The notes under the pieces: generated by a model
Database searches by the model: none
What the model was told of the DNA's origin: nothing
The model's input: the letters and a program-made list of their open reading frames with translations, nothing else
NCBI RefSeq assembly: GCF_020621385.1
Contig: NZ_JAESVA010000004.1
Location: 482,691 to 546,690, forward strand
Origin: Acidisoma cellulosilyticum
GTDB taxonomy: Bacteria > Pseudomonadota > Alphaproteobacteria > Acetobacterales > Acetobacteraceae
Length of the DNA: 64,000 nt
Direction of reading: 5' to 3'
Made by a program: the position numbers and the translations under genes
Shown: piece after piece, positions 26,416 through 63,429 of the stretch
How positions within the stretch are numbered: position 1 is the first letter of the stretch
Layout of the letters: every line of letters begins with the position of its first letter

Positions 26416-26727
26416 CGCCCTCCCCTTCGTCCTGTGACGGCGGCGTACTTATTTCACCCGCAAAGCAGAGGGCGGTCAATTCCCTTCACTCCGAAAATGA
26501 CCCCTACTAATTAGTAGGCATGACCGCCTGGCCGGATTTGCGATATGCACATTCTGCAAGGCGTTAAGCGACCTGCTACTCGAACGACTGCCAAATGTGC
26601 CGCGCCATAGGTTTCGCTGCCGTCCGCGCGCCCGAAAGCATGCGATCGACCATTTCGCGTTTGATTCCGTTTTAAAAATGATATTGTCATCCGGTGTCGT
26701 TGGCGCCGCATGCGGGAGAGGATCGTG
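26416..26727. promoter_or_regulatory. divergent control region of the DsbA-like gene and the secretion operon, with perfect palindrome
   Basis: No gene is seen in these 312 bases. At 26503-26518 there is a perfect 16-base palindrome, CCTACTAATTAGTAGG, bordered on both sides by ATGACC (26497-26502 and 26520-26525) in direct orientation. It lies about 90 bases upstream of the DsbA-like start and 210 upstream of the operon's first gene, a good position for a shared repressor or activator. A weak TTGATT near 26661 could be a -35 element for the operon. No candidate regulator gene is adjacent. Confidence 0.5.
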
Positions 26728-46649: not shown

Positions 46650-47471
46650 CTATACCAAAATCATCCCGCCGTCACACATGATGATCTGTCCCGTCATATA
46701 GTCGGAATCGGCCGAGGCAAGAAAGGCGCAGATACCCGCGAGGTCAGCCGGAACGGCTGGACGGCCGACCAGGATATTCGCAGAAAACGAATTGAGGAAT
46801 TCGCCCTTCTCCTTGATCACGCCTTTATCGATCATATCCCGCTCCAACCCGTCCCATAGCGGGGTCACGACAACACCCGGTGCAATGCCGTTGACCGTGA
46901 TCTTATGCGGTGCGAATTCACGCGCGGCGGCTTGGGTCAGCGAGATGACGGCAGCCTTGCTTGCGCAATAAGGCGCGAATTCTGCATAGCCCTGGCGCCC
47001 GGCAATGGAGGCCGTGTTGATGATCTTGCCGCCCTGCCGGCTTGCGATCATCTGGCGGCCGACCTCCTGCATGCCGATCAAGACACCAAGGGCATTCACG
47101 CGCATGATGCTGTTGAAATTGGCATCATCGATGTCCATGAACGGCACTGGCTTGTTGAAGCCGGCATTGTTGAACAGCACGTCGATTTTGCCATAGACAC
47201 CGACGACCTTTTCGACCATCGCGCGGGTCGCAATACGGTCCGCGACATCGACTGCCACACCCAGGCCAGAAAACCCCTCTGCCCGCAGGCTTTCTGCTGC
47301 ATGCTCCGCTTTGCCACCGTCAAGATCGGCGATGACGGCATGCGCGCCTTCGGCCGCCACGCGGCGAATAATCCCCTCCCCCAGACCGGAGGCACCGCCG
47401 GTGACGATGACGACCTGACCCGCCAAGCGACCTGCCACGATCCGCGCGTCTTTGGTTGCAAGATCAGTCAT
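46650..47471 (-). CDS. SDR-family NAD(P)-dependent dehydrogenase
   Basis: A 273-residue short-chain dehydrogenase. The cofactor motif is VTGGASGLG near residue 24, NNAG lies near residue 103, the catalytic Ser is in TASIAG, and Tyr-x-x-x-Lys is in YCASK near residue 169. The C-terminus MTGQIIMCDGG is typical. It closes the long minus-strand operon and overlaps the preceding alcohol dehydrogenase by eight bases. The family oxidises polyols, sugars or hydroxy acids; the operon setting suggests a cyclitol-like or polyol substrate (inference). Confidence 0.88.
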   Translation of the reverse strand: MTDLATKDARIVAGRLAGQVVIVTGGASGLGEGIIRRVAAEGAHAVIADLDGGKAEHAAESLRAEGFSGLGVAVDVADRIATRAMVEKVVGVYGKIDVLFNNAGFNKPVPFMDIDDANFNSIMRVNALGVLIGMQEVGRQMIASRQGGKIINTASIAGRQGYAEFAPYCASKAAVISLTQAAAREFAPHKITVNGIAPGVVVTPLWDGLERDMIDKGVIKEKGEFLNSFSANILVGRPAVPADLAGICAFLASADSDYMTGQIIMCDGGMILV

Positions 47472-48447
47472 TGCTCAGGGTCACCTTGATGCATTTATCA
47501 GCCTGCGAGCCAAGGGCAAAAGCCTCGATGCTGCGGCTCAGTGGAAATTCATGCGTGCGGATAGGGGAAAGGTCGAGCTTGGTGCGCTCCAGAAAGCGGA
47601 TTGCCGCCGGCCATACGCCGGGCGAACCAATGCAGCCTCTGACAGTAAGATTGCGCATCTGGATATTGCCCAGATGGGAACTGACCATTCGTCCGATATT
47701 GATTCCGACCATCGACAAGCGGCCTTCTTCCCGCACGAGGTCGAAGACCAGACCGAGAGACGCATCATGGCCGGAGGCTTCCACCACCAGATCGGCACCC
47801 TTCCCTTGTGTCAGCGCCATGACCTGGTCAATCGTGTTTCCGGCCAGCGGATCGATGACCTCGGCCGCCTCAAGCTTCAAAGCGGCGTCCCGTCGGCTTG
47901 CGATTGGATCGATGACGATGACGCGCGCACCCATGCCGATGGCAGCCGCCGCGGACACAAGACCGATAGTGCCGCCGCCGGAGACCACAACCGTCTCGCT
48001 CGCATTCGTGCCGCCGGAGCGTTGCACGGCATAGAAGCCACACGTAAAGGGCTCGATCAGTGACGCAGTCCCGTCATCGATCGTGTCGGGCAATTTGTGC
48101 AGCCATTCCGGCCGAACCACGAAATATTCCCGGTCTGCTCCATTCAGGGAGAAGCCGAAATGGTGAATCCGATCCGGCAAACGCACAACGCATTCACCCA
48201 CCACGCGCTCACCGCGATGGAAACCCTGCACGTTGCGGCCAGTCTCGACAATCTCTCCGCACCATTCGTGGCCGGGCGTCACCGGATAGCTGATCGGAAT
48301 GATGTAGCGGCCCGCGAGCAACTCGTAATCAGAATGGCAGATCCCGACCTTGAGAAGGCGCACGAGAATTTCATTCTCGGTGATTTTAGGCACCGGCACA
48401 TCTTGCAGAACAGGTGCGTCCGGCGTTTCGAAGACGAGCGCTTTCAT
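47464..48447 (-). CDS. zinc-dependent medium-chain alcohol/polyol dehydrogenase
   Basis: A 327-residue MDR dehydrogenase. Catalytic zinc ligands are visible (Cys in VGICHSDYELLAG near residue 37, His in TPGHEWCGE near residue 58), and the cofactor motif is GGGTIGLV near residue 166. The four-Cys structural zinc lobe is absent, a feature shared with sorbitol-dehydrogenase-like members that bind only the catalytic metal. It overlaps both neighbours by four to eight bases and is thus part of the hydroxyquinol operon. The substrate is probably a polyol or sugar-like alcohol. Confidence 0.87.
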   Translation of the reverse strand: MKALVFETPDAPVLQDVPVPKITENEILVRLLKVGICHSDYELLAGRYIIPISYPVTPGHEWCGEIVETGRNVQGFHRGERVVGECVVRLPDRIHHFGFSLNGADREYFVVRPEWLHKLPDTIDDGTASLIEPFTCGFYAVQRSGGTNASETVVVSGGGTIGLVSAAAAIGMGARVIVIDPIASRRDAALKLEAAEVIDPLAGNTIDQVMALTQGKGADLVVEASGHDASLGLVFDLVREEGRLSMVGINIGRMVSSHLGNIQMRNLTVRGCIGSPGVWPAAIRFLERTKLDLSPIRTHEFPLSRSIEAFALGSQADKCIKVTLSND

Positions 48448-49466
48448 GCCGCTTCTCTCCCCTCGCCTTGCACCGCTTCCAACCTTTGGCTTCGCGCGCC
48501 GCGCACGATCGCTTCAAGGAGTGCGATATTCGCGACCATCTCGGCGCCCGTAATGGGATAGGCAGCCTCACCGCGCACGGCGCGCGCAAAGGCCTCAAAA
48601 TTCGTGACTACCGGCTCCGCAGGCTTCACCTCTTCGACCGTGATGGGCTGATCCTTCATGCCGGTGGTGACAACCCATCCGTCCGGCGCTTCGACATGGG
48701 CGCGGTCCCGCACATCGATCCAACCTTCCGTGCCGAAGACAGCGAAACGCGAGAAGAAGGGCGTGGCAAGTGTCGCGCTGATATAGGCGGTGCCGCCGCC
48801 GGCGAAGCGGACATAGGCGCTCATCGTGTCGCCGGAGGGCAAGTCAGACGCCCGCTGTTCGCAGGTCACCAGAACATCGCGCGCCGGGCCCATCAGCTTC
48901 ACGGCGAGGTCCGTCAGATGAATGCCGGTTGCGGTCATGCCACCCGCCGGCGCTTGATCCGGCTTCAACCGCCAGTTTGCCCGATCGAGCTTGAGGAATT
49001 TGTCATGGCTGAAATTGGCCTCGATCTGCAGCAGGCGGCCGAGCGAACCGTTTTCAGCGGCCGTCAGGATCGCGGCGATCGGGGGCTCAAACCGCCGCTC
49101 ATGGCCCATGCCCAGAACAAGCCCGGCCTGCTGGCAGCGCGCGACGGCCTGCTCGGCCCCGGCGCGTGTCAGTGCCAGGGGCTTTTCGCAAAAGACGTGC
49201 TTTCCGGCCGCGACGGTTTGCGCGATCTGCTGCTCGTGAAAGCTATGCGGTGTCACTAGCAGCACGGCTTCGATGGCCGGATCGGCCAATGCATCTTCGA
49301 GAGCTGCCGATACTGGGATTTTGTAGCGATCGGCAAATTGGGTTGCGATGTCCTGATTAACTTCGACCGCGCGCGCGATGCGAATACGAGGATTGCCTTC
49401 GAGCGTCGCCGCGATCTTGCTGCCCCACCAACCGAGCCCGACAAGGGCCACTTTTACCGGTTCCAT
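48444..49466 (-). CDS. Gfo/Idh/MocA family oxidoreductase
   Basis: A 340-residue NAD(P)-dependent dehydrogenase with VALVGLGWWGSKIA at the N-terminus, the EKP motif in HVFCEKPLAL near residue 92, and TATGIHLTDLAVKLMGP with the conserved His near residue 176. ATG 49466 is chosen because GGGAGTG lies nine bases upstream; a further ATG at 49481 lacks one. It starts 39 bases after the thiolase gene and overlaps the alcohol dehydrogenase by four bases, which links sugar- or inositol-type oxidation to the ring-cleavage genes. Confidence 0.88.
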   Translation of the reverse strand: MEPVKVALVGLGWWGSKIAATLEGNPRIRIARAVEVNQDIATQFADRYKIPVSAALEDALADPAIEAVLLVTPHSFHEQQIAQTVAAGKHVFCEKPLALTRAGAEQAVARCQQAGLVLGMGHERRFEPPIAAILTAAENGSLGRLLQIEANFSHDKFLKLDRANWRLKPDQAPAGGMTATGIHLTDLAVKLMGPARDVLVTCEQRASDLPSGDTMSAYVRFAGGGTAYISATLATPFFSRFAVFGTEGWIDVRDRAHVEAPDGWVVTTGMKDQPITVEEVKPAEPVVTNFEAFARAVRGEAAYPITGAEMVANIALLEAIVRGARSQRLEAVQGEGREAA

Positions 49467-49505
49467 CTGTTTCACTCCCATTGTCTTTTTTGCCGCGCGG
49501 TGTCT

Positions 49506-50711
49506 TCAGACCGCTTCCAGCATCAGCGCTATGCCTTGTCCGACGCCAATGCACATCGTCACCAAGGCGAAGCGCCCGCCACGCTGCTCCAGCGCATTGA
49601 CCGCTGTCATGGCCAGCCTGGCGCCAGACGCCCCCAAGGGATGGCCGATAGCGATGGCACCGCCATGCGGGTTGACGTGCTCGGCATCCGCTGGCAGGCC
49701 CAACCGCCGCAGCACGGCAATGGCCTGGGACGCGAAGGCCTCGTTCAGTTCGATGACATCGACATCGCGAATGGACAGGCCGAGGCGCGCAAGCAGCTTT
49801 TCACTGGCGGGTGCCGGCCCCATGCCCATGATGCGCGGCTCAACGCCCGCTGTCGCCATGCCGAGAATCCGCGCGCGCGGCCTTAACCCATGGCGAGCGG
49901 CCGCCGCTTCACTGGCGACGATCAGCGCGGCCGCGCCATCATTCACGCCGGAAGCATTGCCGGCGGTGACCGTGCCACCTGTCTTGCGGAAGGGCGTCGG
50001 CAGTTTCGCCAAAGCATCCAAGCTTGTCTCCGGTCTTGGATGTTCGTCGACCGAGACCACGGTTTCGCTCTTCTTGCCGCGCATGGTGACAGGCACAATT
50101 TCCCGTGCAAAGAAGCCCTCAGCCTGCGCCTTTGCGGCGCGCTGCTGACTGCGCAGTGCAAACTGGTCCTGCTCCGCACGCGACACGCCAAACTGTTCCG
50201 CCACATTCTCGCCGGTCTCCGGCATGGCGTCTGTGCCGTAGAGCGCCTGAAGGGCCGGATTGATGAAGCGCCAGCCGATCGTCGTATCCTCAAGGGCTGC
50301 CTGTCGCGAGAAGGCCTGCGCCTGCTTGCCCATGACGAAGGGCGCCCTTGTCATGCTCTCCACGCCACCAGCCAGCGCGAACTCTCCCTCCCCAGCCCGG
50401 ATCATGCGCGCGGCCGTGCCGAGCGCGTCCAGGCCCGAGCCACAGAGGCGATTGACGGTGCTCCCCGGAACCCCAGGCCCGAAGCCCGCCAGCAGCAGCG
50501 CCATGCGGGCGACGTTACGATTATCCTCACCGGCCTGGTTGGCACAGCCCATGGAGCAGTCGTCCAGCGCATCCCAATCGACGGAGCCGTGTCGCGTGTG
50601 TAGCGTCGCCAGGACATGCGCCAGCATATCGTCGGGACGCAGATCTTTCAGGGCGCCGCCGTAGCGGCCGAAGGGCGTGCGGGCAAAGTCACAGATAAAA
50701 GCTTCAGACAT
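49506..50711 (-). CDS. pcaF: 3-oxoadipyl-CoA thiolase
   Basis: A 401-residue thiolase that splits 3-oxoadipyl-CoA into succinyl-CoA and acetyl-CoA, the last step of the 3-oxoadipate pathway. The nucleophile Cys90 is in STVNRLCGSG, the His is in AIAIGHPLGASGAR near residue 357, and the second Cys is in TMCIGVGQG near residue 387. Its start overlaps pcaJ by eight bases. Sequence alone cannot exclude a general acetyl-CoA acetyltransferase, but the pcaIJ neighbours support pcaF. Confidence 0.9.
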   Translation of the reverse strand: MSEAFICDFARTPFGRYGGALKDLRPDDMLAHVLATLHTRHGSVDWDALDDCSMGCANQAGEDNRNVARMALLLAGFGPGVPGSTVNRLCGSGLDALGTAARMIRAGEGEFALAGGVESMTRAPFVMGKQAQAFSRQAALEDTTIGWRFINPALQALYGTDAMPETGENVAEQFGVSRAEQDQFALRSQQRAAKAQAEGFFAREIVPVTMRGKKSETVVSVDEHPRPETSLDALAKLPTPFRKTGGTVTAGNASGVNDGAAALIVASEAAAARHGLRPRARILGMATAGVEPRIMGMGPAPASEKLLARLGLSIRDVDVIELNEAFASQAIAVLRRLGLPADAEHVNPHGGAIAIGHPLGASGARLAMTAVNALEQRGGRFALVTMCIGVGQGIALMLEAV

Positions 50712-51363
50712 GAACGGTCTCCGCCGCCAGCAGAGAGGCGCCCGTCAGGCGTCTGAGGTCTTCGATGGAAATATCCTGGTGCTTGTCGCGAAGGACAAAA
50801 CCTGCAGGCGTCACGTCGATCACCGCTAAATTGGTGCAGATCCGGCTGACGACGCCGAGCGCCGTCAGTGGATACCGACATTGCTCGACGAGTTTGGGGG
50901 CGCCGTCGCGCGTCGTATGCTCGGTCATAACCCAGACGCGCTTGGCGCCGGCCGCGAGGTCCATCGCGCCACCGACCGCCGGCGCCGCATCGGCCTCCGA
51001 GATCGCCCAATTCGCCAGGTCGCCGTTGCTGGCAACCTCGTAGGCGCCGAGGACGCACAGATCGATATGGCCGCCGCGGATCATCGCGAAACTGTCCGCG
51101 TGATGAAAAAAAGCCCCACCCTTGTGCAGCGTGACATGCTGTTTTCCGGCATTGATCAGCCAAGGATCTTCCTGCCCTTTCTCGGGGGCCGGCCCCATAC
51201 CCAGCAGTCCGTTTTCGGAATGCAGCACCACTTCGCGGTCATCGGGGATCGCGTCGGCGATCAATGTCGGGATGCCGATGCCGAGATTGACATACCATCC
51301 TTCCGGAATCTCGGCAGCAACGCGCGCCGCCATTTCCCGTCTGGACCAACCAGCGGCGCTCAT
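50704..51363 (-). CDS. pcaJ: 3-oxoadipate CoA-transferase beta subunit
   Basis: A 219-residue subunit B of a class I CoA-transferase that moves CoA from succinyl-CoA to 3-oxoadipate. The catalytic Glu50 is in VLHSENGLLG. The sequence GIGIPTL near residue 28 and GGAMDLAAGAKRVWVMTEH near residue 128 are typical. ATG 51363 overlaps the pcaI stop by four bases; the frame runs further upstream without support. Confidence 0.9.
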   Translation of the reverse strand: MSAAGWSRREMAARVAAEIPEGWYVNLGIGIPTLIADAIPDDREVVLHSENGLLGMGPAPEKGQEDPWLINAGKQHVTLHKGGAFFHHADSFAMIRGGHIDLCVLGAYEVASNGDLANWAISEADAAPAVGGAMDLAAGAKRVWVMTEHTTRDGAPKLVEQCRYPLTALGVVSRICTNLAVIDVTPAGFVLRDKHQDISIEDLRRLTGASLLAAETVHV

Positions 51364-52043
51364 GCTGCAAGCTCCTTGGGTAGCGGCAATGTCAGGATGC
51401 GTTGGACGAAGATGCCCGGTGTCACGACCACTTCCGGATCGATGGCGCCGAGCTCGACGAAATAATGCGTCTGCGCGATCGTCAACTTCGCCGCCGTCGC
51501 CATGACCGCGTTGAAATTGCGGCCGCTCTTTTGATAGGTCAGATTGCCCCAACGATCGGCAAACCAGGCTTCGACCAGCGCAACGTCGCCGGGCAGCGCT
51601 TGTTCCAGCACATAGAACCGGCCGCCGATTTCCCGGACTTCCTTGTCCTTAGCGAGCTTCGTGCCATAGCCTGTGGGGGTGAAGAACGCCGGAATGCCGG
51701 CGCCGGCCGCGCGTAGCCTCTCGGCGAGCGTGCCCTGCGGCACAATTTCCAGCTCGATCTTGCCGGCTCGAAACAGATCCTCGAACACAACGGATCCCGC
51801 GCTGCGCGGGAAAGAGCAGATGATACGACGGACGCGCCCGGCCTCCATAAGCTTTGCAAGACCGACCCGCCCTGCTCCGGCATTATTGGCGACAACCGTC
51901 AGGTCACGTGCCCCTTGATCGATCAAAGATTCAATCAATAGATCAGGTTGTCCGACCGCACCGAAACCGCCGACTAAAATCGTCGCGCCGTCTTCAATGC
52001 CCGCGAGCGCCTCCTCGATAGTCGCGACTGATTTGTTGATCAT
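51360..52043 (-). CDS. pcaI: 3-oxoadipate CoA-transferase alpha subunit
   Basis: A 227-residue subunit A of the same transferase. The CoA-binding Gly loop is VGGFGAVGQPD near residue 23, and the conserved FFTPTGYGT lies near residue 121. Paired with pcaJ in the usual alpha-then-beta order. Scot-type transferases for acetoacetate are close relatives; the ring-cleavage context favours 3-oxoadipate. Confidence 0.9.
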   Translation of the reverse strand: MINKSVATIEEALAGIEDGATILVGGFGAVGQPDLLIESLIDQGARDLTVVANNAGAGRVGLAKLMEAGRVRRIICSFPRSAGSVVFEDLFRAGKIELEIVPQGTLAERLRAAGAGIPAFFTPTGYGTKLAKDKEVREIGGRFYVLEQALPGDVALVEAWFADRWGNLTYQKSGRNFNAVMATAAKLTIAQTHYFVELGAIDPEVVVTPGIFVQRILTLPLPKELAA

Positions 52044-52065
52044 GATGTGTGAACCACTGGAGGCA

Positions 52066-53733
52066 TCAGGCAGCCCTCCTGCTTGATTTGTGACGAAAAA
52101 TGCCGTCGATCCGCCGCTGAGCGGAAACGAGGGCTGCTCTGTCCGTTGTTTGCCCGGTCAGGGCATCATGCACTTCCTGGCCGATGATCGCTTCCATCGC
52201 GACATATTCGGGAATCGGCGGGCGCTGCCAGCTGTCGAGCAGATCGCGCCGCGCCACGCGCTCCACAAAGTTCACGATCGGTGAGCTTTGCATGACCTCA
52301 GGGTCAGAGATCACGCTGAAACGCGGACGCACCGGCAGTCCGCTTTTCAGATGATCCCGCACCGTATCGGGCGAGGTGATCCAGGCGATCGCATCGACCG
52401 CAAGGCGCATGCGCTCTTCCGGCAGATTGCTCGGAACTGCGAGCACAAAACCGCCGATCGGCGCTGTCACCTTGCCTTGGGGGCCGGCAGGATGCGGCAG
52501 GTATTCCACCTTGCGGCCGACTTTGGAGCGCGTGTCGTATTCAAAACGCGCGGCCCGCATGCTCCAGCAATAGGTCATCGCCGCGTGCCCGGTTAGAAAG
52601 GTATCGAGGCTTGCTTCCCAATCCAATTCCGTCACACCAGGCGGCGAAATCTCCACCAGCCTGTGCATATAGTCGAGGACGCGCAGCCCCGCTGTCATGT
52701 CGATGACCGGCCTTACGGGTTTGCTGGCTGTCTTGGCAGAGCGGTCCAACAAAAAGCTTCCGCAATCGCCGAGCAGGAACAGGAAACTCGCGGCGATCGG
52801 CATGCCTCGCGCCGCATTCCAGGTAATGCCATAGCGGCCATGGGCGGGCGCGTGCAGCGCCTTGCCGGCAGCCAGCACCTGTTCGAAGTTCGACGGAAAC
52901 CCGATATTGGCTTCCTGAAAAAGATCCCGCCGCACCGCCAATGTCTCGATCGTACAATAGATCGGCATGCCGTATTGCGTGCCACGCCATTTGCCGGTTG
53001 CCCAGAAATCCGCATGAAATTCGGTCGGCTCCAACCCGGCATCCCGCACCACATTGCCGAGCGGGCGAATGAAACCCTTGGCCGCGAATTCCCCCATCCA
53101 GGGAATATTGATGGCAACGATATCATATTGCGAGACGGGCCTTTGGGCATTTTCCATCGCAAGTTGATAAAGCTGCGGCAGGCGCGCCAAGGTAAAGTCG
53201 CGACGGGAGCCAAAGCTTGTTCGCAGATCAGCCCACATATTCTGCAACGCGACGAAATAATTGTCCTCTGCCAGCAGAAAGCGAATGTCGAAGCGCTTGC
53301 TGTGCTGAGCGCCGGGTGACCCGCCGATAGGCGAAGCGCCGAAATAATAGTCCTCGCTCGCCTCCCCAGGGCCGCGACTACCCAGGGTTTGAGCGACCGC
53401 GCGCTTCACCTCAACCAGATAGGATTCGAACAGTTTCTTGAGCTTCGCACTTGGCTGCAGAGCGAATGATTTCCCTGTCTTCGTGCGCGGCACGCGGGTA
53501 ATCAGCCCCGCGTCTATCAACTCCTCGACCTTGCGTAACGCCGTGGTGTAAGGCGCGTAACCGGCCTGGGCTAAAGCCGAGATGGTGACGATATCCCCAC
53601 GGGTCACACTGCTCATGAGATGATGGACCAACTGCCAAACGAGTTCGCTGTCACCTTGTGGAAATGCTTTTGCCCAGGGCGAGCGTAGCTTCTGCAGAAA
53701 GTCCAGAATCCTCAGGAGTTCAAGGTCATTCAT
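52066..53733 (-). CDS. regulator-like fusion: winged helix plus solute-binding-protein fold
   Basis: A 555-residue cytoplasmic protein with no signal peptide. Residues 1-115 look like a MarR-type winged helix, with ISALAQAGYAPYTTALRKVE and a wing ending GKSFALQPS. Residues 150-550 match a family-1 extracellular sugar-binding protein (IVAINIPWMGEFAAKGFI near residue 205, YGMPIYCTIETLAVRRDLF near 255, and PIGGFVLAVPSN near 425). Normally this fold is periplasmic; here it would serve as an intracellular ligand sensor joined to DNA binding. It sits inside the hydroxyquinol operon, between the dehydrogenase and pcaI, so it probably reads a pathway compound and controls the operon. Related proteins occur in a few proteobacteria and tend to be annotated simply as solute-binding proteins. 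Confidence 0.8.
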   Translation of the reverse strand: MNDLELLRILDFLQKLRSPWAKAFPQGDSELVWQLVHHLMSSVTRGDIVTISALAQAGYAPYTTALRKVEELIDAGLITRVPRTKTGKSFALQPSAKLKKLFESYLVEVKRAVAQTLGSRGPGEASEDYYFGASPIGGSPGAQHSKRFDIRFLLAEDNYFVALQNMWADLRTSFGSRRDFTLARLPQLYQLAMENAQRPVSQYDIVAINIPWMGEFAAKGFIRPLGNVVRDAGLEPTEFHADFWATGKWRGTQYGMPIYCTIETLAVRRDLFQEANIGFPSNFEQVLAAGKALHAPAHGRYGITWNAARGMPIAASFLFLLGDCGSFLLDRSAKTASKPVRPVIDMTAGLRVLDYMHRLVEISPPGVTELDWEASLDTFLTGHAAMTYCWSMRAARFEYDTRSKVGRKVEYLPHPAGPQGKVTAPIGGFVLAVPSNLPEERMRLAVDAIAWITSPDTVRDHLKSGLPVRPRFSVISDPEVMQSSPIVNFVERVARRDLLDSWQRPPIPEYVAMEAIIGQEVHDALTGQTTDRAALVSAQRRIDGIFRHKSSRRAA

Positions 53734-53762
53734 TGCAATTCCTAAGCCCTGTTTCCTGTTCC

Positions 53763-54656
53763 CTAGGCCAAGGGCAAGCCCGCCTGAGCCTCATATTGCT
53801 CAAGCAGCACAAAAAAGTCCTTCAAGCCACTCCCTTGAGCGCGCGCCACTTCATATTGTTGGCGGATCAGGCTGATCAGAAACACGGGCACCTGCTCGCT
53901 ACTTGCGGCGTCCAGGACCAAGTCAAAATCCTTGATCATCTGTTCGACCGTAAAGGCCGGCGTGAAATCGCGCGATGTCAGCATGTCGCGCTTATAGGCG
54001 ATCAGCGGCGATGCCACGGCGCTTTCGCAAATGACCTCCAGCATCTGCTCCGTCGTCAAATTGCCTTTCCGCCCGAAGGTGAGCGCCTCGGCAAGAAGGG
54101 CCGATGTGGCACCCACAAGCATATTGATGGCGAGCTTGAGATAGCGCGCCTCCTCCCCGGTGCCGAGATAGAAGCGGCGGATGGAAAACGTCTCCAGCAA
54201 GGGCTCCACAATGCGGTAAGCGGCTTCCGCGCCGGACGCGAGGACCGTGAGTTTGCCGGCCTCAGCCGTCGCGGTACTGCCGGACAAGGGCGACCGCAGA
54301 TAGTGGATACCCGCTGCCGCCAAAGCGATGCCGACCTCAGCCGACACACGCGGCGATACCGTGCTGGTTTCAACCAGGATCGAATCCGGGGCCATTCTTC
54401 GCGCAAGCCCTTGATCACCCAAAACCAGCGAGCGCAGAACGCCATCATTCGGGATCGACAGAAACGTGATGGGCGCGGCTGCCGCGACCGCCTCAGGGCT
54501 CAGGGCGACCTCCGCGCCTGCCGCCGCGGCGATGGCCGTTGCCTCCGGCGATATATCATAGACATGGAGCTGATGCCCGGCCGCCCCGATATGGCGGCTC
54601 ATCGGCGCACCCATCTTGCCGAGGCCGATCCAACCCACAGACATCCTATTCCTCAT
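53763..54656 (-). CDS. 3-hydroxyisobutyrate dehydrogenase-family oxidoreductase
   Basis: A 297-residue beta-hydroxyacid dehydrogenase. The N-terminal motif is GWIGLGKMGAPMSRH, the substrate motif is LRSPLSGSTATAEAGKL near residue 120 (the usual DAPVSGG region, with altered residues), and the catalytic Lys is in YLKLAINMLVG near residue 173. ATG 54656 overlaps the dioxygenase stop by four bases (ATGA); ATG 54644 has a slightly better AGGA and is also possible. Family members oxidise 3-hydroxy acids or reduce semialdehydes, including tartronate semialdehyde. The substrate here is unknown. Confidence 0.85.
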   Translation of the reverse strand: MRNRMSVGWIGLGKMGAPMSRHIGAAGHQLHVYDISPEATAIAAAAGAEVALSPEAVAAAAPITFLSIPNDGVLRSLVLGDQGLARRMAPDSILVETSTVSPRVSAEVGIALAAAGIHYLRSPLSGSTATAEAGKLTVLASGAEAAYRIVEPLLETFSIRRFYLGTGEEARYLKLAINMLVGATSALLAEALTFGRKGNLTTEQMLEVICESAVASPLIAYKRDMLTSRDFTPAFTVEQMIKDFDLVLDAASSEQVPVFLISLIRQQYEVARAQGSGLKDFFVLLEQYEAQAGLPLA

Positions 54657-55582
54657 GTGGGGGCTCCGTTCAATCCGGCAACCGTCCTGGCGCCAGTCAT
54701 AGGGTTCAACGCCTCCTTCTGGAGGCGAAAGTCGAGGGACAAGCATTGGCAGCCCTCGGGGAGACTATACAGCCGGCGTTCTTCCGTCGTGGGATCACGC
54801 AAAGGCGTTATCAGACTGTCTTTCACGCCGAAGACAGCATCGCTATCGAGGTAAGGATCACCATCGATAAAAATATGCGTCGTCAGCGTGTCATAGCCAG
54901 CGCAGCGCAGAATGAAATGAATATGGGCCGGGCGCATCGGATGCCGGCCCAGGGCTTTGAGCATATCGCCGACAGGCCCGTCGCTCGGGATCGGGTAGGA
55001 GGCCGGCACAATGCTGCGAAACCAGAAATCGCCATCGGAACCCGTGCTAAAAACGCCGCGCAGATTCATATCGGGCTGGCTATCATCCTGTGTATCATAG
55101 AAGCCGTCCTCGGATGTCTGCCAGACATCCAGCTCGACGTTTTCAAGGGGCAAGCCATGCTCATCGCTTACACGCCCAAGCACAAATAGCGGCTCACCCC
55201 GGCCATGATGCGCAATCATCGCACCCATCGGCAGATGCGGCGCGCCATCGACATAAAAAGGCCCAAGCACGGTCGAGGGTGTCACTTCATCGATCTTGCG
55301 GCTGTTGATGGCATCGACGAGCATGGAGACGCCCAAACAGTCCGAGAGGAGGATGAACTCCTGCCGCCGGTCGCTGCTGATCTGGCCCGTACGTGTCAGA
55401 AACTGAATAGCGGCCAGCCATTCCTCCGGCGTCAGCCGCAATTCCTTGACGATCGCGTGCAGATGCGGAACCAGGACGGACATGATCTCGCGCAGACGCT
55501 CATCCGTGCAACCGGCATTGCGCTCCAGCACCGCCTCAACCGACCGTTCTTCCGTAAAATGCTGGGTTTTACCGAGCATCAC
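54653..55582 (-). CDS. hydroxyquinol 1,2-dioxygenase
   Basis: A 309-residue intradiol dioxygenase that opens 1,2,4-trihydroxybenzene to maleylacetate. The non-haem Fe(III) ligands are all present: Tyr162 (SEDGFYD), Tyr196 (VPASYPIP), His220 and His222 (RPAHIHF). The N-terminal helical domain (residues 1-100) is the intradiol dimerisation and lipid-binding part. Hydroxyquinol and chlorocatechol dioxygenases share the fold; the adjacent maleylacetate reductase supports hydroxyquinol. Its ATG overlaps the maleylacetate reductase stop by four bases. Confidence 0.9.
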   Translation of the reverse strand: MMLGKTQHFTEERSVEAVLERNAGCTDERLREIMSVLVPHLHAIVKELRLTPEEWLAAIQFLTRTGQISSDRRQEFILLSDCLGVSMLVDAINSRKIDEVTPSTVLGPFYVDGAPHLPMGAMIAHHGRGEPLFVLGRVSDEHGLPLENVELDVWQTSEDGFYDTQDDSQPDMNLRGVFSTGSDGDFWFRSIVPASYPIPSDGPVGDMLKALGRHPMRPAHIHFILRCAGYDTLTTHIFIDGDPYLDSDAVFGVKDSLITPLRDPTTEERRLYSLPEGCQCLSLDFRLQKEALNPMTGARTVAGLNGAPT

Positions 55583-56652
55583 GCTTGCTCCTCCTGAGGC
55601 GGTTTCCCCGCGAAAGCATTCTGGAGAAGCCTGCGTAGCGCCGCTGTCTCCAACGGTCGTGGGTTAGGATAAGGGCGTGCCGCCGCTTGGGTAACGGCCT
55701 GCTCGATATCAGCTTCGCGCATGCCGATCTCTGCCAGGCTGAGCGGTGCGCCCAGGCGCCGGGACAGATCATACAGCCCTTGCGCGGCATTCTCTGCCCC
55801 CAGAGCCGATGCGATGCGCCGCATCGCCTCCGGCGCACCCGCGGCATTATATGCGACCGCATGGGGCAGCACGACGGTATGGGTCGGTGCATGAGGAAGA
55901 TTGAAGGACCCACCGAGCACATGACAAAGCTTGTGATGCAGCGCCATGCCCACAGAACCGAGTGCGATGCCGCAAAGCCAGGCACCATAGAGCGCCTGAT
56001 GGCGTGCATCCCGGTCATGAGGATCTGCCACGATGATCGGCAAAGCCTTCGCCAGCGCCTTGATCGCCTCCTCCGCCATCAGGGAGATGATCGGATTGCG
56101 CTCCTCCGCATAAAGCGCTTCGACCGCATGGGCGATGGCATTCATGCCACTTGTCGCGCTGATCGCTGGCGGCAGGCTGAGTGTCAAGGACACGTCGTAA
56201 ATCGTCGTCTCCGGCAGCACTTTCGGCGTACGCAGCGTGATTTTCTCGCCGTTCTTCGTTTCGCCGAGGATCGGTGTCATTTCTGACCCGGCATAGGTCG
56301 TCGGCACGGCGATTTGCGGCAAGTCCGTGCGCAGAGCGATGGCTTTGCCGAGGCCGGTGGTCGATCCGCCACCGACGGAGACCACGCCGTCCACATTCAG
56401 GGACTGCACGACGGCCAGGGCCTGCTCGGTGATGTCGACCGGCGTATGCATGGTCGCCCGGTCGAAAAGTCCGACGGCAAGCGTACCGAGACGCGCCGCG
56501 ATATCGGCGGCCTGGTCTTTTTGCTCCGGCGTCGACAGCACGAGGATTCTTCCCATGCCGAGGCGCTCTGCCTCTTCCGGCAATTGCGCCAAGGTGCCGT
56601 CGCCAAAGACGACGCGCATCGGCAGGCCATCAAATACAAATGGTTCTAGCAC
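55579..56652 (-). CDS. maleylacetate reductase
   Basis: A 357-residue iron-alcohol-dehydrogenase-fold enzyme that reduces maleylacetate to 3-oxoadipate with NAD(P)H. GGGSTTGLGKAIAL near residue 94, AVPTTYAGSEMTPI near residue 116, and the histidine-containing ALHHKLCHVLGG near residue 237 are all typical. It is the first gene of the ten-gene operon, with divergent transcription from the ribose-type importer. Together with the dioxygenase and pcaIJF it completes the route from hydroxyquinol to succinyl-CoA and acetyl-CoA. Confidence 0.92.
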   Translation of the reverse strand: MLEPFVFDGLPMRVVFGDGTLAQLPEEAERLGMGRILVLSTPEQKDQAADIAARLGTLAVGLFDRATMHTPVDITEQALAVVQSLNVDGVVSVGGGSTTGLGKAIALRTDLPQIAVPTTYAGSEMTPILGETKNGEKITLRTPKVLPETTIYDVSLTLSLPPAISATSGMNAIAHAVEALYAEERNPIISLMAEEAIKALAKALPIIVADPHDRDARHQALYGAWLCGIALGSVGMALHHKLCHVLGGSFNLPHAPTHTVVLPHAVAYNAAGAPEAMRRIASALGAENAAQGLYDLSRRLGAPLSLAEIGMREADIEQAVTQAAARPYPNPRPLETAALRRLLQNAFAGKPPQEEQA

Positions 56653-56898
56653 TTTGCCTCCCGTAATCGCGCGACGTCATATTATTTGTGCGGCGCATCA
56701 TAGGACTGCACCGCGCGTCGGCTTCAGCCCAACTTAGGTTCGCCATCCTGCCAGGGCGAGATGTAAATTGTCCAATTTGAACAATTTCAATCTAGCCAAA
56801 CTGCGTTTTGAGTTCCACCCTCTCGGAAACTGAGGCAGCGTTGTCTCGGCAAGATAAACAAAAATGGATTGCCATCATCGGCAACCAAGAGGGGAAAC
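56653..56898. promoter_or_regulatory. divergent control region between hydroxyquinol operon and CUT2 importer
   Basis: No gene lies in these 246 bases. At 56765-56787 there is an inverted repeat, AAATTGT, nine bases, then ACAATTT, inside an A/T-rich patch that stands out in this GC-rich DNA. A second, overlapping symmetry is TTGAA-CAAT-TTCAA. The position between the two operons fits a shared operator; the winged-helix fusion at 52066-53733 is the most obvious candidate binder. The importer start has AGAGGGGA as its ribosome site. Confidence 0.5.
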
Positions 56899-58056
56899 AT
56901 GAGGAACGGATTCAAAGCCGCGCTTCTCGGCACGCTGGCTGCTGGCTTTCTCGCAGGCGTCGGTCATGCGCAAAGCCAACCCGCAACGCCCGCCGGATAT
57001 CAAGGCGCGCCGCGCACGGAACTTTTCAATCCGGCGCTCACCACCTGCATTCGCGACACCTCGAAATACAAGAAGGCGCCTCCCTATACGATCGGCTTCT
57101 CCAATGCCGGTCTCGGTGACAGCTGGCGCGTCGTCGCATTGGATGAATTGAAGCAAGGTGCCGAAGACCACAAGGACGTCATCAAAAAGCTGATTATTAC
57201 CGATGCTGGGCATGATGACGCCAAGCAAGTCTCGGACGTGCAGGATCTTGCGTCTCAAGGCGTTGATCTGATGATTGTCAGCGCGAATACTGAAAAGGCG
57301 CTTGACCCGATCGTCACGCGCGTGATGCGCCAGGGTATTCCGGTCATCATGCTCGACCGTCGCATCTCATCCGATCATTTCGTCACCTATATCAACGCCT
57401 CGGATCCCATGATGGGCCGCCTCTGGGCGCAGTGGATCGTCGAGAAGCTGCATGGCAAGGGCAATGTCGTGCTGCTCGGTGGTCAGGCCGGGTCAAGCCC
57501 GAGCGAAAACCGCATGAATCCGGCCAAGGAGATCTTCGCGCAATATCCCGGCATTCATATCCTCGACACGGTCTATTCGGACTGGAGCCCCGTGAAGGGT
57601 AAGCAGGTCATGCAGGCCGTCATCGCCAAATACGGTCACAAGATCGACGCGGTCTGGTCGGCCCATGGCCTGCAGGTGCCTGGCTCGATCGAGGCCTTCG
57701 TGGAGGCCGGCTTCAAGCCTGGTGAAATTCCGATGCACACCACGGCGGACGTCAACGGCCCGTTGCTTGAAGCCATCAAGTATAAAGTGCCGATGCTGGA
57801 GATCAGCGACCCGCCGTCACAGTATCGCACAGCGATCGACGTTGCCCTGAAAGTATTGAGCGGCGCGGCCGTTCCCTGCACCTATACCGTGAACTCTCAG
57901 ATCTCGGTGACCCCTGGCGACGAGACGCCGTCGATCAAGAGCGATGTCCCGTTCGACAGCCTGGGCCTGCCGGATAAGCCGTCCAACTACCTCGTGACCA
58001 ATGATCTCGGGCCGACCTACGATCCGACGACCGCGCATACTCAATATCCGCATTGA
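56899..58056 (+). CDS. ribose-type (CUT2) ABC transporter substrate-binding protein
   Basis: A 385-residue periplasmic binding protein of the RbsB/family-4 type. The signal peptide ends near residue 24 (GHAQ). The paired Rossmann-like lobes carry TIGFSNAGLGDSW near residue 61, DLMIVSANTEKALDPIV near residue 125, and VIMLDRRI near residue 150. ATG 56899 with a strong ribosome site is preferred over the upstream in-frame start. Relatives bind ribose, xylose, inositol, erythritol and other polyols. The divergent hydroxyquinol operon suggests an unusual cyclic or polyol substrate. Confidence 0.9.
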   Translation: MRNGFKAALLGTLAAGFLAGVGHAQSQPATPAGYQGAPRTELFNPALTTCIRDTSKYKKAPPYTIGFSNAGLGDSWRVVALDELKQGAEDHKDVIKKLIITDAGHDDAKQVSDVQDLASQGVDLMIVSANTEKALDPIVTRVMRQGIPVIMLDRRISSDHFVTYINASDPMMGRLWAQWIVEKLHGKGNVVLLGGQAGSSPSENRMNPAKEIFAQYPGIHILDTVYSDWSPVKGKQVMQAVIAKYGHKIDAVWSAHGLQVPGSIEAFVEAGFKPGEIPMHTTADVNGPLLEAIKYKVPMLEISDPPSQYRTAIDVALKVLSGAAVPCTYTVNSQISVTPGDETPSIKSDVPFDSLGLPDKPSNYLVTNDLGPTYDPTTAHTQYPH

Positions 58057-58063
58057 GGTCGCC

Positions 58064-59560: not shown

Positions 59561-59571
59561 GGAGAAACGGC

Positions 59572-60546
59572 ATGAGCATCACCGCCACTACGGCCCTGCC
59601 GCGCAACAGGGCGCGTCGCTTGCCTGAGCAAGTGCTGCGACTTGGCATCGTCGTTCTTTTGATCGTTGTCATCACGGTTCTGGGCTGTCTTGTCTCGGAT
59701 CGCTTCGGCACGCTCAATAATTTTCTGAATGTCTATGAGCAATCGACGGATCTGGCACTCGTCGCGCTCGGGCAGACTTTGACGATTCTGACGGGCGGTA
59801 TCGACCTGTCTGTCGGCTCCATGATCAGTCTGCTGTCGGTCCTGACCTCGGGCATCATCAACAGCAATGGCGATCTGGTGCTCCCCGTCTGCGCCGGCAT
59901 CATTGTGCTCGGCATGGTCATCGGCCTCATCAATGGCATCGCCATCGTGATGCTCAGGGTGCATCCATTGATCGTCACGCTCGGCACCGGCGCCGTGCTG
60001 CAGGGTCTGGCCCTGCTATACACCATGGCGCCTGCGGGCGGGGTGCCGGACGGTTTCGACTTCCTGGCCTATGGCCGCATCGCGGATATATCGGTCGGCG
60101 CGACGATCGTGCTCCTCGTCTATCTGCTCGCCAGTTTCCTGATGCGGCGGACGGCCACGGGTCGCAATATCTACGCGATCGGCGATGACAGACACGCTGC
60201 CGTGCTGCTGGGCTTGCCCGTCAAACGGCTGACGATGCTCGTCTACACTTTGTCCGGTCTGCTTTGCGCGATGACAGCGATCTATCTGGTCGCGCGGTTC
60301 GGGTCCGGCCAGCCTTACGCGGGGGCGAACTACACGCTCGCCTCCGTGACCCCCGTCGTTGTCGGTGGCACCATGCTGAGCGGCGGCCGCGGCGGTGTCA
60401 TCGGCACGCTGCTCGGCGCCTATCTCATCGCGCTGCTCAATGACTTCCTGAATTTCCTCCACGTATCGACCGAAATCCAGCTCGTCGTGCAGGGGCTGAT
60501 CATCATGCTGGCCGTTTCGGCCTATCGCGAAGGGAAGAGAGGCTGA
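59572..60546 (+). CDS. ribose-type ABC transporter permease 1
   Basis: A 324-residue RbsC-like permease with eight to ten membrane segments. The conserved QTLTILTGGIDLSVGSMISL motif lies near residue 65, and TPVVVGGTMLSGGRGGVIGTL near residue 260. It overlaps the next permease by one base (TGATG). Confidence 0.9.
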   Translation: MSITATTALPRNRARRLPEQVLRLGIVVLLIVVITVLGCLVSDRFGTLNNFLNVYEQSTDLALVALGQTLTILTGGIDLSVGSMISLLSVLTSGIINSNGDLVLPVCAGIIVLGMVIGLINGIAIVMLRVHPLIVTLGTGAVLQGLALLYTMAPAGGVPDGFDFLAYGRIADISVGATIVLLVYLLASFLMRRTATGRNIYAIGDDRHAAVLLGLPVKRLTMLVYTLSGLLCAMTAIYLVARFGSGQPYAGANYTLASVTPVVVGGTMLSGGRGGVIGTLLGAYLIALLNDFLNFLHVSTEIQLVVQGLIIMLAVSAYREGKRG

Positions 60547-61529: not shown

Positions 61530-61561
61530 CGGCAGCCGTTCAGACCAAGAAAGGCAAGCTC

Positions 61562-62335: not shown

Positions 62336-62349
62336 TAAGGAGAAAAGCC

Positions 62350-62643
62350 ATGCATTTCACCATTCATTGCCTGGACAAAGCCGGTGCTGTGGAACAAAGG
62401 CTCGCGCATTACGATGCTCATAAAGCCTATCTATCCTCGGCACCGATCACCATGCTCGTGTCAGGTCCGCTTCTGGCGCCGGATCACGAGACGATGATCG
62501 GCAGTTTCTTTCTTGTCGAAGCGGATAGCCAGGCGCAGGTTGAAGCCTTCCATAACAACGACCCCTTCAAGAAGGCGGCGATCTGGGAAAAGGTTTCGAT
62601 CCATCCTTTTCTGAAGCGCGTCGATAATCGCGCTGCGACATAA
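62350..62643 (+). CDS. YciI-family protein (TftG-like dehydratase or dehydrohalogenase candidate)
   Basis: A 97-residue YciI-fold (ferredoxin-like) protein. The His-Asp pair typical of the family is visible (HYDAHKAYL near residue 20, following CLDKAGAV), with MIGSFFLVEADSQAQVE near residue 50 and NDPFKKAAIWEKV near residue 75. The frame extends upstream, but ATG 62350 is the only sensible start and has AGGAGA upstream. In the 2,4,5-T pathway, the YciI-type protein TftG eliminates HCl from 5-chlorohydroxyquinol. Here it is linked to hydroxyquinol genes, so an elimination step on a trihydroxy ring or its precursor is possible (inference). Confidence 0.82.
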   Translation: MHFTIHCLDKAGAVEQRLAHYDAHKAYLSSAPITMLVSGPLLAPDHETMIGSFFLVEADSQAQVEAFHNNDPFKKAAIWEKVSIHPFLKRVDNRAAT

Positions 62644-62661
62644 CAAAATCGAGGGACGACA

Positions 62662-63429
62662 ATGGGACGCCTAGACCAAAAAATCGCGATCATAACGGGC
62701 GGCGGCACCGGTATCGGGGAAGCCACCTGCCAGCGATTCGCTGAGGAAGGGGCCAAGGTTGCGGTCTTTGAAATCAGTGCCGAGAACGGTGGCAAGACAG
62801 CGGAAAAGCTGCGTAGTCTTGGTGCTGATGCCGATTTCTTTCAAGTCGACGTGCGCGATGCGGACAGTGTTTCAAGCGCTGTCGCGGCGGTCGCAGACAA
62901 ATGGGGCCAGATCGACATCCTGGTGAATAATGCGGCCATCCCGGGCGCCAATAAATTCACTCATGATCTCAGCCTTGAGGAATTCGAGGCTGTCTTCGCC
63001 GTCAATGTGCGCGGCACCTTCCTGTGTTCCAAATACGTGCTGCCGCATATGATGCAGGCGAAGCGCGGCGCGATCGTGAATTTCTCCTCGATCTATGGTC
63101 TGATCGGCAATGACGATCTGCCGCCCTATCATGCGACCAAGGGCGCGGTGCTGCTGATGACCAAGACGGACGCCATCTGCTATGCGCCTTACGGCATCCG
63201 CGTCAATTGCGTGCACCCCGGCTCGACGAAGACGCCGCTTTTCATGAAGGCGGGCGAAACCTATCCAGGCGGTCTGCAGCATTATCTCGACATGATGAAG
63301 GCGAAGCATCCGCTGACATTGGGTGAGCCGGTCGATGTCGCGAATTGCGTGCTGTTCCTGGCCTCGGATGAAGCGCGTTTTGTGACGGGCGCCAGTCTGG
63401 CCTGTGACGGCGGCTATACGGCGCAATAA
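62662..63429 (+). CDS. SDR-family NAD(P)-dependent dehydrogenase
   Basis: A 255-residue short-chain dehydrogenase with ITGGGTGIGEATCQRF near residue 12, NNAAIPG near residue 90, the catalytic Ser in NFSSIYG near residue 139, and Tyr-x-x-x-Lys in YHATKGA near residue 155. It is not a copy of the SDR at 61562. It lies 18 bases after the YciI gene. Having two different SDRs and a zinc dehydrogenase in one operon suggests successive oxidations of a polyhydroxy compound. Confidence 0.88.
   Translation: MGRLDQKIAIITGGGTGIGEATCQRFAEEGAKVAVFEISAENGGKTAEKLRSLGADADFFQVDVRDADSVSSAVAAVADKWGQIDILVNNAAIPGANKFTHDLSLEEFEAVFAVNVRGTFLCSKYVLPHMMQAKRGAIVNFSSIYGLIGNDDLPPYHATKGAVLLMTKTDAICYAPYGIRVNCVHPGSTKTPLFMKAGETYPGGLQHYLDMMKAKHPLTLGEPVDVANCVLFLASDEARFVTGASLACDGGYTAQ

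What the first reader, a model, noticed from the sequence alone, without database searches (positions are those of the whole stretch)
46650..63429. Hydroxyquinol ring-cleavage operon merged with polyol-type dehydrogenases and a CUT2 importer, without an aromatic hydroxylase
Ten minus-strand genes with overlaps or short gaps join maleylacetate reductase, hydroxyquinol dioxygenase and pcaIJF to Gfo/Idh, MDR, SDR and HIBADH-type dehydrogenases; opposite them is a ribose-type importer with two SDRs, a YciI protein and an MDR. No hydroxylase that would make hydroxyquinol from resorcinol or a phenol is present. A deoxyinositol (quercitol) fits the atom balance: oxidation to a deoxyinosose, then loss of two waters, gives C6H6O3, hydroxyquinol; deoxy-scyllo-inosose is known to aromatise to it chemically. 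This would be a non-aromatic-to-aromatic catabolic route. It is a hypothesis.
Basis: inference. Interest (0 to 1): 0.85.

Follow-up and report, generated by a model that had tools for sequence, protein, structure and literature searches.

The report
Cyclitol-to-hydroxyquinol catabolic gene cluster
A bacterium from rotting oak heartwood carries a gene cluster, shared with other soil and plant bacteria, that looks built to import a sugar-like ring alcohol, turn it into an aromatic ring (hydroxyquinol) by oxidation and loss of water, and then break that ring open; the route is inferred from the genes, not shown.

Summary
The operon is real: ten minus-strand genes (46650-56652) opposite a ribose-type importer with two SDRs, YciI and an MDR that continues past the window. 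Dioxygenase and maleylacetate reductase are firmly identified. The unnamed tenth gene (52066-53733) is a winged-helix/solute-binding-domain fusion, probably the regulator. The host is Acidisoma cellulosilytica HW T5.17, from decaying oak (Quercus) heartwood. Orthologous clusters occur in Acetobacteraceae, Rhizobiales and Rhodobacterales. YciI's only strong solved relative is TftG, which eliminates HCl from a chlorohydroxyquinol; a second own-genome cluster has a QuiC-like barrel. A cyclitol-type substrate aromatised to hydroxyquinol is more likely than not (0.6); quercitol is one candidate, unproven. Beside the window lies a second module (intradiol dioxygenase + FAA hydrolase) for which I propose a tetrahydroxybenzene route to pyruvate and malonate; two relatives carry malonyl-CoA synthetase and decarboxylase beside it, the own genome does not.

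The parts
46650..47471 (-). SDR1, short-chain dehydrogenase
   Evidence: PF00106/PF13561; best NCBIfam acetoin reductase and L-iditol 2-dehydrogenase, below cut-off
47464..48447 (-). MDR1, zinc-type dehydrogenase
   Evidence: PF08240+PF00107; L-threonine 3-dehydrogenase 157 bits and scyllo-inosose 3-dehydrogenase IolM 152 bits, both far below cut-off; in 12 of 13 loci
48444..49481 (-). Gfo/Idh/MocA dehydrogenase
   Evidence: PF01408; best PDB 3db2, then 4,5-dihydroxyphthalate dehydrogenase 7wzd; Ala where 2glx and 3kux have Asp
49506..50711 (-). pcaF, 3-oxoadipyl-CoA thiolase
   Evidence: TIGR02430 645 bits, cut-off 597
50704..51363 (-). pcaJ, 3-oxoacid CoA-transferase subunit B (start set by me)
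   Evidence: TIGR02428 292 bits, cut-off 244
51360..52043 (-). pcaI, 3-oxoacid CoA-transferase subunit A
   Evidence: TIGR02429 344 bits, cut-off 128.5
52066..53733 (-). probable regulator: N-terminal winged helix (about residues 1-115) fused to an SBP_bac_1 domain
   Evidence: PF01547 at 192-456; HTH_27/MarR_2 E 0.002-0.003, below cut-off; AF2 model H-H-H-H-b-b-H then SBP fold, best fold match 5iai
53763..54656 (-). HIBADH/6PGDH-type dehydrogenase (start set by me)
   Evidence: PF03446+PF14833
54653..55582 (-). hydroxyquinol 1,2-dioxygenase-type intradiol dioxygenase
   Evidence: best PDB 8r2x 6-chlorohydroxyquinol 1,2-dioxygenase E 3e-83, 1tmx hydroxyquinol 1,2-dioxygenase E 5e-73; Y,Y,H,H iron ligands present
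55579..56652 (-). maleylacetate reductase
   Evidence: best PDB 3hl0 and 3w5s, maleylacetate reductases, E about 1e-125
56766..56786 (.). palindrome in the divergent promoter, candidate operator (weak variant of the motif of relatives)
   Evidence: 3 mismatches to TATCCRNNNYGGATA
56899..58056 (+). CUT2 periplasmic binding protein SBP2
   Evidence: PF13407
58064..59560 (+). CUT2 ATPase (start by my gene caller)
   Evidence: PF00005, 2 stretches
59572..60546 (+). CUT2 permease 1
   Evidence: PF02653
60546..61529 (+). CUT2 permease 2
   Evidence: PF02653
61562..62335 (+). SDR2
   Evidence: PF13561
62350..62643 (+). YciI-family protein, candidate dehydratase
   Evidence: PF03795; best PDB TftG E 1e-11; 18 columns invariant with TftG, among them R17, H24, D71-P72-F73
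62662..63429 (+). SDR3
   Evidence: PF13561
63455..64000 (+). MDR2, zinc-type dehydrogenase, continues outside the window (to L006:8212)
   Evidence: PF08240+PF00107; IolM 147 bits, cut-off 450

Best explanation
A catabolic island that imports a polyhydroxylated six-ring compound (cyclitol or related hydroaromatic) through a CUT2 importer, oxidises a ring carbinol to a ketone with Gfo/MDR/SDR dehydrogenases, lets the keto-cyclitol lose two waters (YciI as candidate beta-elimination catalyst, by analogy with TftG) to become hydroxyquinol, cleaves it with HQD to maleylacetate, reduces that with MAR to 3-oxoadipate, and ends with PcaIJF in succinyl-CoA and acetyl-CoA. A winged-helix/SBP fusion senses a sugar-alcohol-like ligand and controls the divergent promoter. 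The lower half (HQD, MAR, PcaIJF) follows from strong family identification; import of a sugar-like solute is a family-level inference; oxidation, aromatisation and regulation are inferred. A deoxyinositol oxidised next to its CH2 (C6H12O5 - 2H = C6H10O5; - 2 H2O = C6H6O3) is the simplest candidate; an inositol can reach the same formula by loss of three waters with an extra reduction, for which the PRISE-type gene of many relatives might serve.
For: HQD and MAR identities. No listed PF01494 match within 10 kb of the cluster in 24 of 24 records (list cut at E about 3e-6, some contigs end earlier), no HpaB_N match in the own genome. Positive control: 5 of 12 other HQD-type genes have one against 0 of 19 cluster HQDs (Fisher p 0.005); three of those control stretches carry a 584-aa FAD hydroxylase, LIV-type importer and LysR-type gene (L146, L147, L149; importer and LysR named by eye; the L146 hydroxylase by Pfam). 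Conserved linkage. The cluster HQDs are not one clade: at least 5 changes against HQDs of hydroxylase or LIV-importer contexts, so the contexts exchange the same enzyme, as expected if both make hydroxyquinol. TftG acts on a chlorohydroxyquinol. A second own-genome cluster (C14:74345-94894) has two CUT2 importers, YciI, HQD, MAR, PcaIJF and a PF01261 barrel whose best NCBIfam hit is QuiC. AroE- and QuiC-type genes lie next to the cluster in Loktanella and about 17 kb further on the own contig. Host from oak heartwood, grows on inositol and sorbitol.
Against: No gene of the window is a proven keto-cyclitol dehydratase; YciI is 38% identical to TftG over 85 residues. MAR was not found in 3 of 8 fetched Acetobacteraceae stretches, one of which (L045) also lacks Gfo, MDR1 and YciI. 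Two relatives (L057, L083) carry the upper genes without HQD, MAR or the core YciI. PcaIJF is not part of the conserved core. The own genome has an IolB/KduI-type gene on another contig, so inositol use need not involve this cluster. SBP2 and the second-type binding protein have no informative solved relative. The regulator's sensor is also close to maltose/trehalose-binding proteins. 7 of the 12 other HQD-type genes also lack a hydroxylase within 10 kb, so absence alone proves little. L056 has an FMO-type oxygenase (by eye) about 2.6 kb from YciI.
Confidence: 0.6

Rival explanations
1. An ordinary phenol/resorcinol-type hydroxyquinol pathway whose hydroxylase is encoded elsewhere in the genome; the polyol dehydrogenases and importer are a separate neighbouring system.
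For: The own genome has 32 PF01494 matches, the 5 listed ones on other contigs; HQD/MAR are the standard lower pathway.
Against: Upper and lower genes lie in one tight operon and the linkage persists in Acetobacteraceae, Rhizobiales and Rhodobacterales; control clusters of the same genomes have a hydroxylase and a LIV-type importer instead; no HpaB_N match in the own genome.
Confidence: 0.15
2. Catabolism of an aryl or C-glycoside or another conjugate: Gfo/MDR oxidise the sugar part to release hydroxyquinol or a precursor.
For: Gfo/Idh proteins such as DgpA act on glycosides (listed as weak relatives; function recalled); CUT2 importers take up sugar-like solutes.
Against: No glycosidase or lyase is annotated in the cluster of the four annotated relatives; the Gfo is closer to 4,5-dihydroxyphthalate dehydrogenase (E 1e-24) than to DgpA (E 4e-12).
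Confidence: 0.1
3. Degradation of a halogenated or otherwise substituted (hydro)aromatic, with YciI acting as a dehydrohalogenase as TftG does.
For: YciI's best PDB match is TftG and HQD's best match is 6-chlorohydroxyquinol 1,2-dioxygenase.
Against: No hydroxylase partner; sugar-type importer; relatives come from soil, wheat leaves, pea nodules and plant tumours.
Confidence: 0.08
4. The substrate is an aminocyclitol or a hydroaromatic acid (for example quinate-like) rather than a neutral cyclitol; otherwise the same route.
For: AroE/QuiC-type genes lie near the cluster in two lineages; an amidohydrolase recurs near related modules.
Against: No aminotransferase or decarboxylase is annotated in the cluster of the four annotated relatives.
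Confidence: 0.15

Closest known systems
Quinate/shikimate to protocatechuate catabolism (pathway recalled)
   Same: Non-aromatic ring alcohol oxidised, dehydrated to a phenol and cleaved by an intradiol dioxygenase; AroE-, QuiC-, PcaGH-, PcaB- and PcaDC-like genes lie on the same contig
   Different: End product there is protocatechuate, here hydroxyquinol; different dehydrogenases; TftG-like YciI and no QuiC in the window cluster
Canonical hydroxyquinol pathways (resorcinol, chlorophenols, nitrophenol)
   Same: HQD, maleylacetate reductase, 3-oxoadipate end
   Different: They use an aromatic hydroxylase and, in three controls read here, a LIV-type importer; the cluster has neither
2,4,5-T lower pathway with TftG
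   Same: YciI-family TftG and hydroxyquinol-type dioxygenase, with maleylacetate as product
   Different: No TftD-type hydroxylase; polyol importer and dehydrogenases instead; loss of water rather than HCl is inferred
Inositol catabolism (IolG/IolE/IolD/IolB; Thermotoga IolG/IolM), pathway recalled
   Same: Gfo/Idh plus MDR dehydrogenases that resemble IolG and IolM, and a CUT2 importer
   Different: All matches far below the IolG and IolM cut-offs; the ring would be aromatised and oxygenated instead of hydrolysed

Membership tests
Hydroxyquinol lower pathway | Intradiol dioxygenase closest to characterised hydroxyquinol dioxygenases, with the four iron ligands | tested here: met
Hydroxyquinol lower pathway | Adjacent maleylacetate reductase and 3-oxoadipate CoA-transferase/thiolase | tested here: met
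Canonical hydroxyquinol peripheral pathway | Linked aromatic hydroxylase (FAD_binding_3 or HpaB type) | tested here: not met
   no listed match within 10 kb in 24 of 24 records
Inositol (iol) pathway | IolG or IolM equivalogs above curated cut-off | tested here: not met
   IolG 115 bits vs 355; IolM 152 and 147 bits vs 450
Inositol (iol) pathway | IolE, IolD, IolB in the cluster | tested here: not met
   not among the cluster genes; an IolB/KduI-type gene lies on contig C2
Quinate/shikimate pathway | QuiC-type dehydratase in the window cluster | tested here: not met
   absent from the cluster; QuiC-like gene about 18 kb beyond MDR2, QuiC-like barrel in the C14 cluster
TftG (YciI dehydrochlorinase) | Residues shared with TftG | tested here: met
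   18 columns invariant in 7 cluster proteins and the TftG stretch, including R17, H24, D71, P72, F73; that a His-Asp pair is catalytic in TftG is recalled
TftG (YciI dehydrochlorinase) | Activity on chlorohydroxyquinol | not testable with these tools
   needs purified protein
Cyclitol-to-hydroxyquinol pathway (proposed) | Substrate binding, oxidation and aromatisation shown | not testable with these tools
   needs growth, binding and enzyme assays

The most novel reading that the evidence does not exclude
A family of parallel pathways in alphaproteobacteria aromatises cyclitols on purpose: deoxyinositols (quercitols) to hydroxyquinol with a 3-oxoadipate end, and inositols via inosose minus two waters to 1,2,3,5-tetrahydroxybenzene, cleaved by a distinct intradiol dioxygenase clade (IDO2) to 2,4-dioxoadipate and split by an FAA-hydrolase-family acylpyruvase to pyruvate and malonate. 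YciI proteins, mostly of unknown function, would be the aromatising dehydratases.
Probability: 0.3. Interest if true: 0.85.

Novelty: new variant of a known kind. Interest (0 to 1): 0.7.

Why it matters
Aromatising a ring alcohol in order to burn it through an aromatic pathway is known for quinate and shikimate. Extension to cyclitols would add a catabolic route for common plant solutes, explain why some hydroxyquinol dioxygenases occur without hydroxylases, give the YciI family a second mechanism-based function, and supply enzymes that make polyphenols from cyclitols. It can be tested directly in a cultured environmental type strain.

Tried and rejected
Filing the cluster under the iol pathway was rejected: IolG and IolM models score far below cut-off. 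Reading 52066-53733 as a secreted binding protein was rejected: the shared part of the 32 aligned rows starts directly with the winged-helix region and shows no conserved leader (by eye; a few rows have longer starts), and the model has a winged-helix fold there. Pfam support for it is weak.

That the FAA hydrolase partner of IDO2 implies malonate was written down before malonate genes were seen. MatB- and MatA-type genes lie within about 4 kb of IDO2/FAAH in Kaistia and Mesorhizobium. The own genome and G283 have neither, only a malonate decarboxylase alpha subunit, in the own genome about 84 kb from IDO2; so for the own genome this is weak. Against it too: acid dehydration of myo-inosose is reported to give the 1,2,3,4 isomer, while base elimination from a protected inosose gives the 1,2,3,5 pattern.

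Solved relatives of the importers gave no cyclitol binder. Distant Gfo relatives (43-50% identity) sit beside luciferase-like monooxygenases and flavin reductases (by eye) and did not help. The operator motif was found in the same 21 stretches in which 19 have at most 2 mismatches; the two that fail are the window (3) and its closest relative L038 (4); background 30 of 1215. The hold-out passed in 3 of 7 stretches (L131, L133, L051) and failed in L153 and the three type-B stretches. The HQD tree has long branches, one poorly filled row, and changes may be losses. Paper searches (listings only) showed none that joins hydroxyquinol with quercitol (0 papers); the one paper is, by title, about a dihydrodiol. 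Most subscription papers are not held, so this is no proof of novelty.
Full report
The window is a stretch of contig C4 of a 59-contig genome of 6,004,381 bases; C4 is 572,597 bases long. The description of Acidisoma cellulosilytica HW T5.17 gives 59 contigs, 6,010,181 bp and an N50 of 572,597 (passages, PMC8537097), and the closest regulator homologue is from Acidisoma silvae (93%). I take the host to be that strain. [quoted passage not shown] That oak wood contains quercitol is recalled, not read here.

Ten minus-strand genes run from 56652 to 46650 with overlaps or gaps of at most 29 bases: MAR, HQD, HIBADH-type, a 555-aa protein, pcaI, pcaJ, pcaF, Gfo/Idh, MDR1, SDR1. HQD is closest to solved hydroxyquinol-type dioxygenases (8r2x E 3e-83, 1tmx E 5e-73; catechol dioxygenases E 9e-38 and weaker) and keeps the four iron ligands. 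MAR matches maleylacetate reductases at E about 1e-125. PcaF, PcaI and PcaJ pass their curated cut-offs. Opposite lie a CUT2 importer, SDR2, YciI, SDR3 and MDR2.

The 555-aa protein is called an extracellular or sugar-transport binding protein where sources name it. About 115 N-terminal residues score weakly as winged helix (E 0.002-0.003, below cut-off) and are modelled as H-H-H-H-b-b-H, followed by a solute-binding fold (mean pLDDT 80). That domain is nearest in sequence and fold to 5iai (recalled as ribitol-bound) and also matches 4rya, named sorbitol-binding; maltose/trehalose binders follow closely. I read it as a cytosolic regulator with a sugar-alcohol-like ligand. In 19 of 21 promoter stretches a palindrome TATCCRNNNYGGATA occurs with at most 2 mismatches (background 30 of 1215); the window has a palindromic variant with 3 and its closest relative 4; a hold-out test passed in 3 of 7.

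Comparative evidence. Of 299 genomes of the order, 9 have the regulator over its full length, own genome included. All 8 others were fetched, 20 kb each: HQD and HIBADH are found in 8 of 8, Gfo and MDR1 in 7, MDR2 and YciI in 6, MAR in 5 (some stretches end inside the cluster). Among the best 80 of 572 Gfo loci in named genomes, the partners are confined to the 13 with Gfo of at least 60% identity; these include Neorhizobium, Rhizobium, Aureimonas, Cypionkella, Sulfitobacter, Kaistia and Mesorhizobium records. Of 9 plasmids with such a Gfo I fetched 8, and all 8 hold HQD, MAR, YciI, Gfo, MDR1, MDR2, HIBADH and the regulator; 4 of the 8 are annotated, the other 4 not. Many relatives add a PRISE-type SDR and a ketopantoate-reductase-like gene and use another kind of CUT2 importer. 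The own genome has a PRISE gene on contig C2 (60%). PcaIJF is not part of the conserved core.

Hydroxylase test. PF01494 was sought in 24 genomes or plasmid records with the cluster; no listed match lies within 10 kb of it (matches weaker than E about 3e-6 are not listed, and some contigs end within 10 kb). HpaB_N matches lie elsewhere and the own genome has none. In 19 of these records I compared the HQD relatives: hydroxylase within 10 kb for 0 of 19 cluster HQDs and 5 of 12 others (counted by hand; Fisher p 0.005). Three control stretches (L146, L147, L149) show a 584-aa FAD hydroxylase, LIV-type importer, LysR-type gene, HQD and MAR (partly by eye; for L146). The cluster HQDs are not one clade; well supported branches force at least 5 changes between cluster and hydroxylase-or-LIV contexts (23 and 10 rows). 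The same kind of enzyme has thus moved between contexts, which fits a shared substrate, hydroxyquinol.

How the ring is made is inferred. C6H12O5 minus 2 H gives C6H10O5, minus 2 H2O gives C6H6O3; elimination on both sides of a ketone placed next to the CH2 gives the 1,2,4 pattern (worked out here). Chemical precedents for inososes going to tetrahydroxybenzenes are in PMC11467972 (passages). The candidate catalyst is YciI: its only strong solved relative is TftG (E 1e-11), which turns chlorohydroxyquinol into hydroxybenzoquinone (PMC3975901, passage); 18 columns, including R17, H24 and D71-P72-F73, are invariant between TftG and 7 cluster YciI proteins. The Gfo has Ala where 2glx and 3kux have Asp before the conserved His; 3db2 has Gln and 4,5-dihydroxyphthalate dehydrogenase Ser.

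The same genome repeats the theme. C14:74345-94894 holds Dabb, two CUT2 importers, SDR2- and MDR2-like genes, a PF01261 barrel whose best NCBIfam match is QuiC (83 bits, cut-off 1200 for the two-domain protein), YciI, a cupin, MAR, HQD and PcaIJF; no hydroxylase was seen and no listed PF01494 match lies on C14. Beyond the window on C4 lie GntR, IDO2, FAA hydrolase, SDR4, a second CUT2 importer and a second YciI, then a third CUT2 importer, TetR, AroE-like, QuiC-like, PcaHG, PcaB and PcaDC-like genes. Loktanella has shikimate-dehydrogenase and QuiC-type genes beside its cluster too.

IDO2 forms one well supported clade (100/99, 4 rows) and is adjacent to the FAA hydrolase in 4 of 21 records searched (own, G283, Kaistia, Mesorhizobium). 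In Kaistia and Mesorhizobium the module lies with GntR, SDR4, Gfo2 and YciI2 and with malonyl-CoA synthase (852 bits, cut-off 558, for the Mesorhizobium gene) and malonyl-CoA decarboxylase genes. Intradiol cleavage of 1,2,3,5-tetrahydroxybenzene would give 2,4-dioxoadipate, and an acylpyruvase would give pyruvate and malonate; this was noted before those genes were seen. The own genome lacks both malonate genes but has a malonate decarboxylase alpha subunit, so the support there is weak.

Verdict. Observation confirmed; interpretation partly supported and strengthened; quercitol is a good but unproven candidate. A cyclitol-type substrate aromatised to hydroxyquinol: 0.6. The two-branch reading: 0.3.

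Noticed in passing
52066-53733: Winged helix fused to an SBP_bac_1 domain, named extracellular or sugar-transport binding protein in sources; probably a one-component regulator of an unusual kind
   Followed up: partly
L006:8258-10792 and L006:11059-16877 (outside the window): GntR, intradiol dioxygenase, FAA hydrolase, SDR, second CUT2 importer and second YciI: a parallel module
   Followed up: partly
L142:12345-18000 and L137:12-15894 (G000:C14): Second hydroxyquinol cluster of the same genome with two CUT2 importers, YciI, QuiC-like barrel, cupin, MAR, HQD and pcaIJF
   Followed up: partly
L007:855-15076: SDR, PF04199 cyclase, third CUT2 importer, TetR, AroE-like, QuiC-HPPD-like, pcaHG, pcaB and pcaDC-like genes
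   Followed up: partly
L138:6257-10205 (G000:C10): HQD with two YciI proteins, MAR and GST-like genes (GST by eye)
   Followed up: no
L144:8420-9790, L143:8343-9668, L142:9778-11145, L056:7307-8695: A TRZ/ATZ-type amidohydrolase (L144 tested, the others by eye) recurs near these modules; role unknown
   Followed up: no
L058, L060, L063, L064, L066, L071, L074, L085: Gfo relatives at 43-50% identity lie beside luciferase-like monooxygenase and/or flavin reductase genes (named by eye)
   Followed up: no
45047-46396: Helix-turn-helix gene (HTH_29), possibly a transposase, next to the end of the operon
   Followed up: no
13268-16438 and 26710-31404: Very long reading frames (1056 and 1564 aa) not examined
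   Followed up: no
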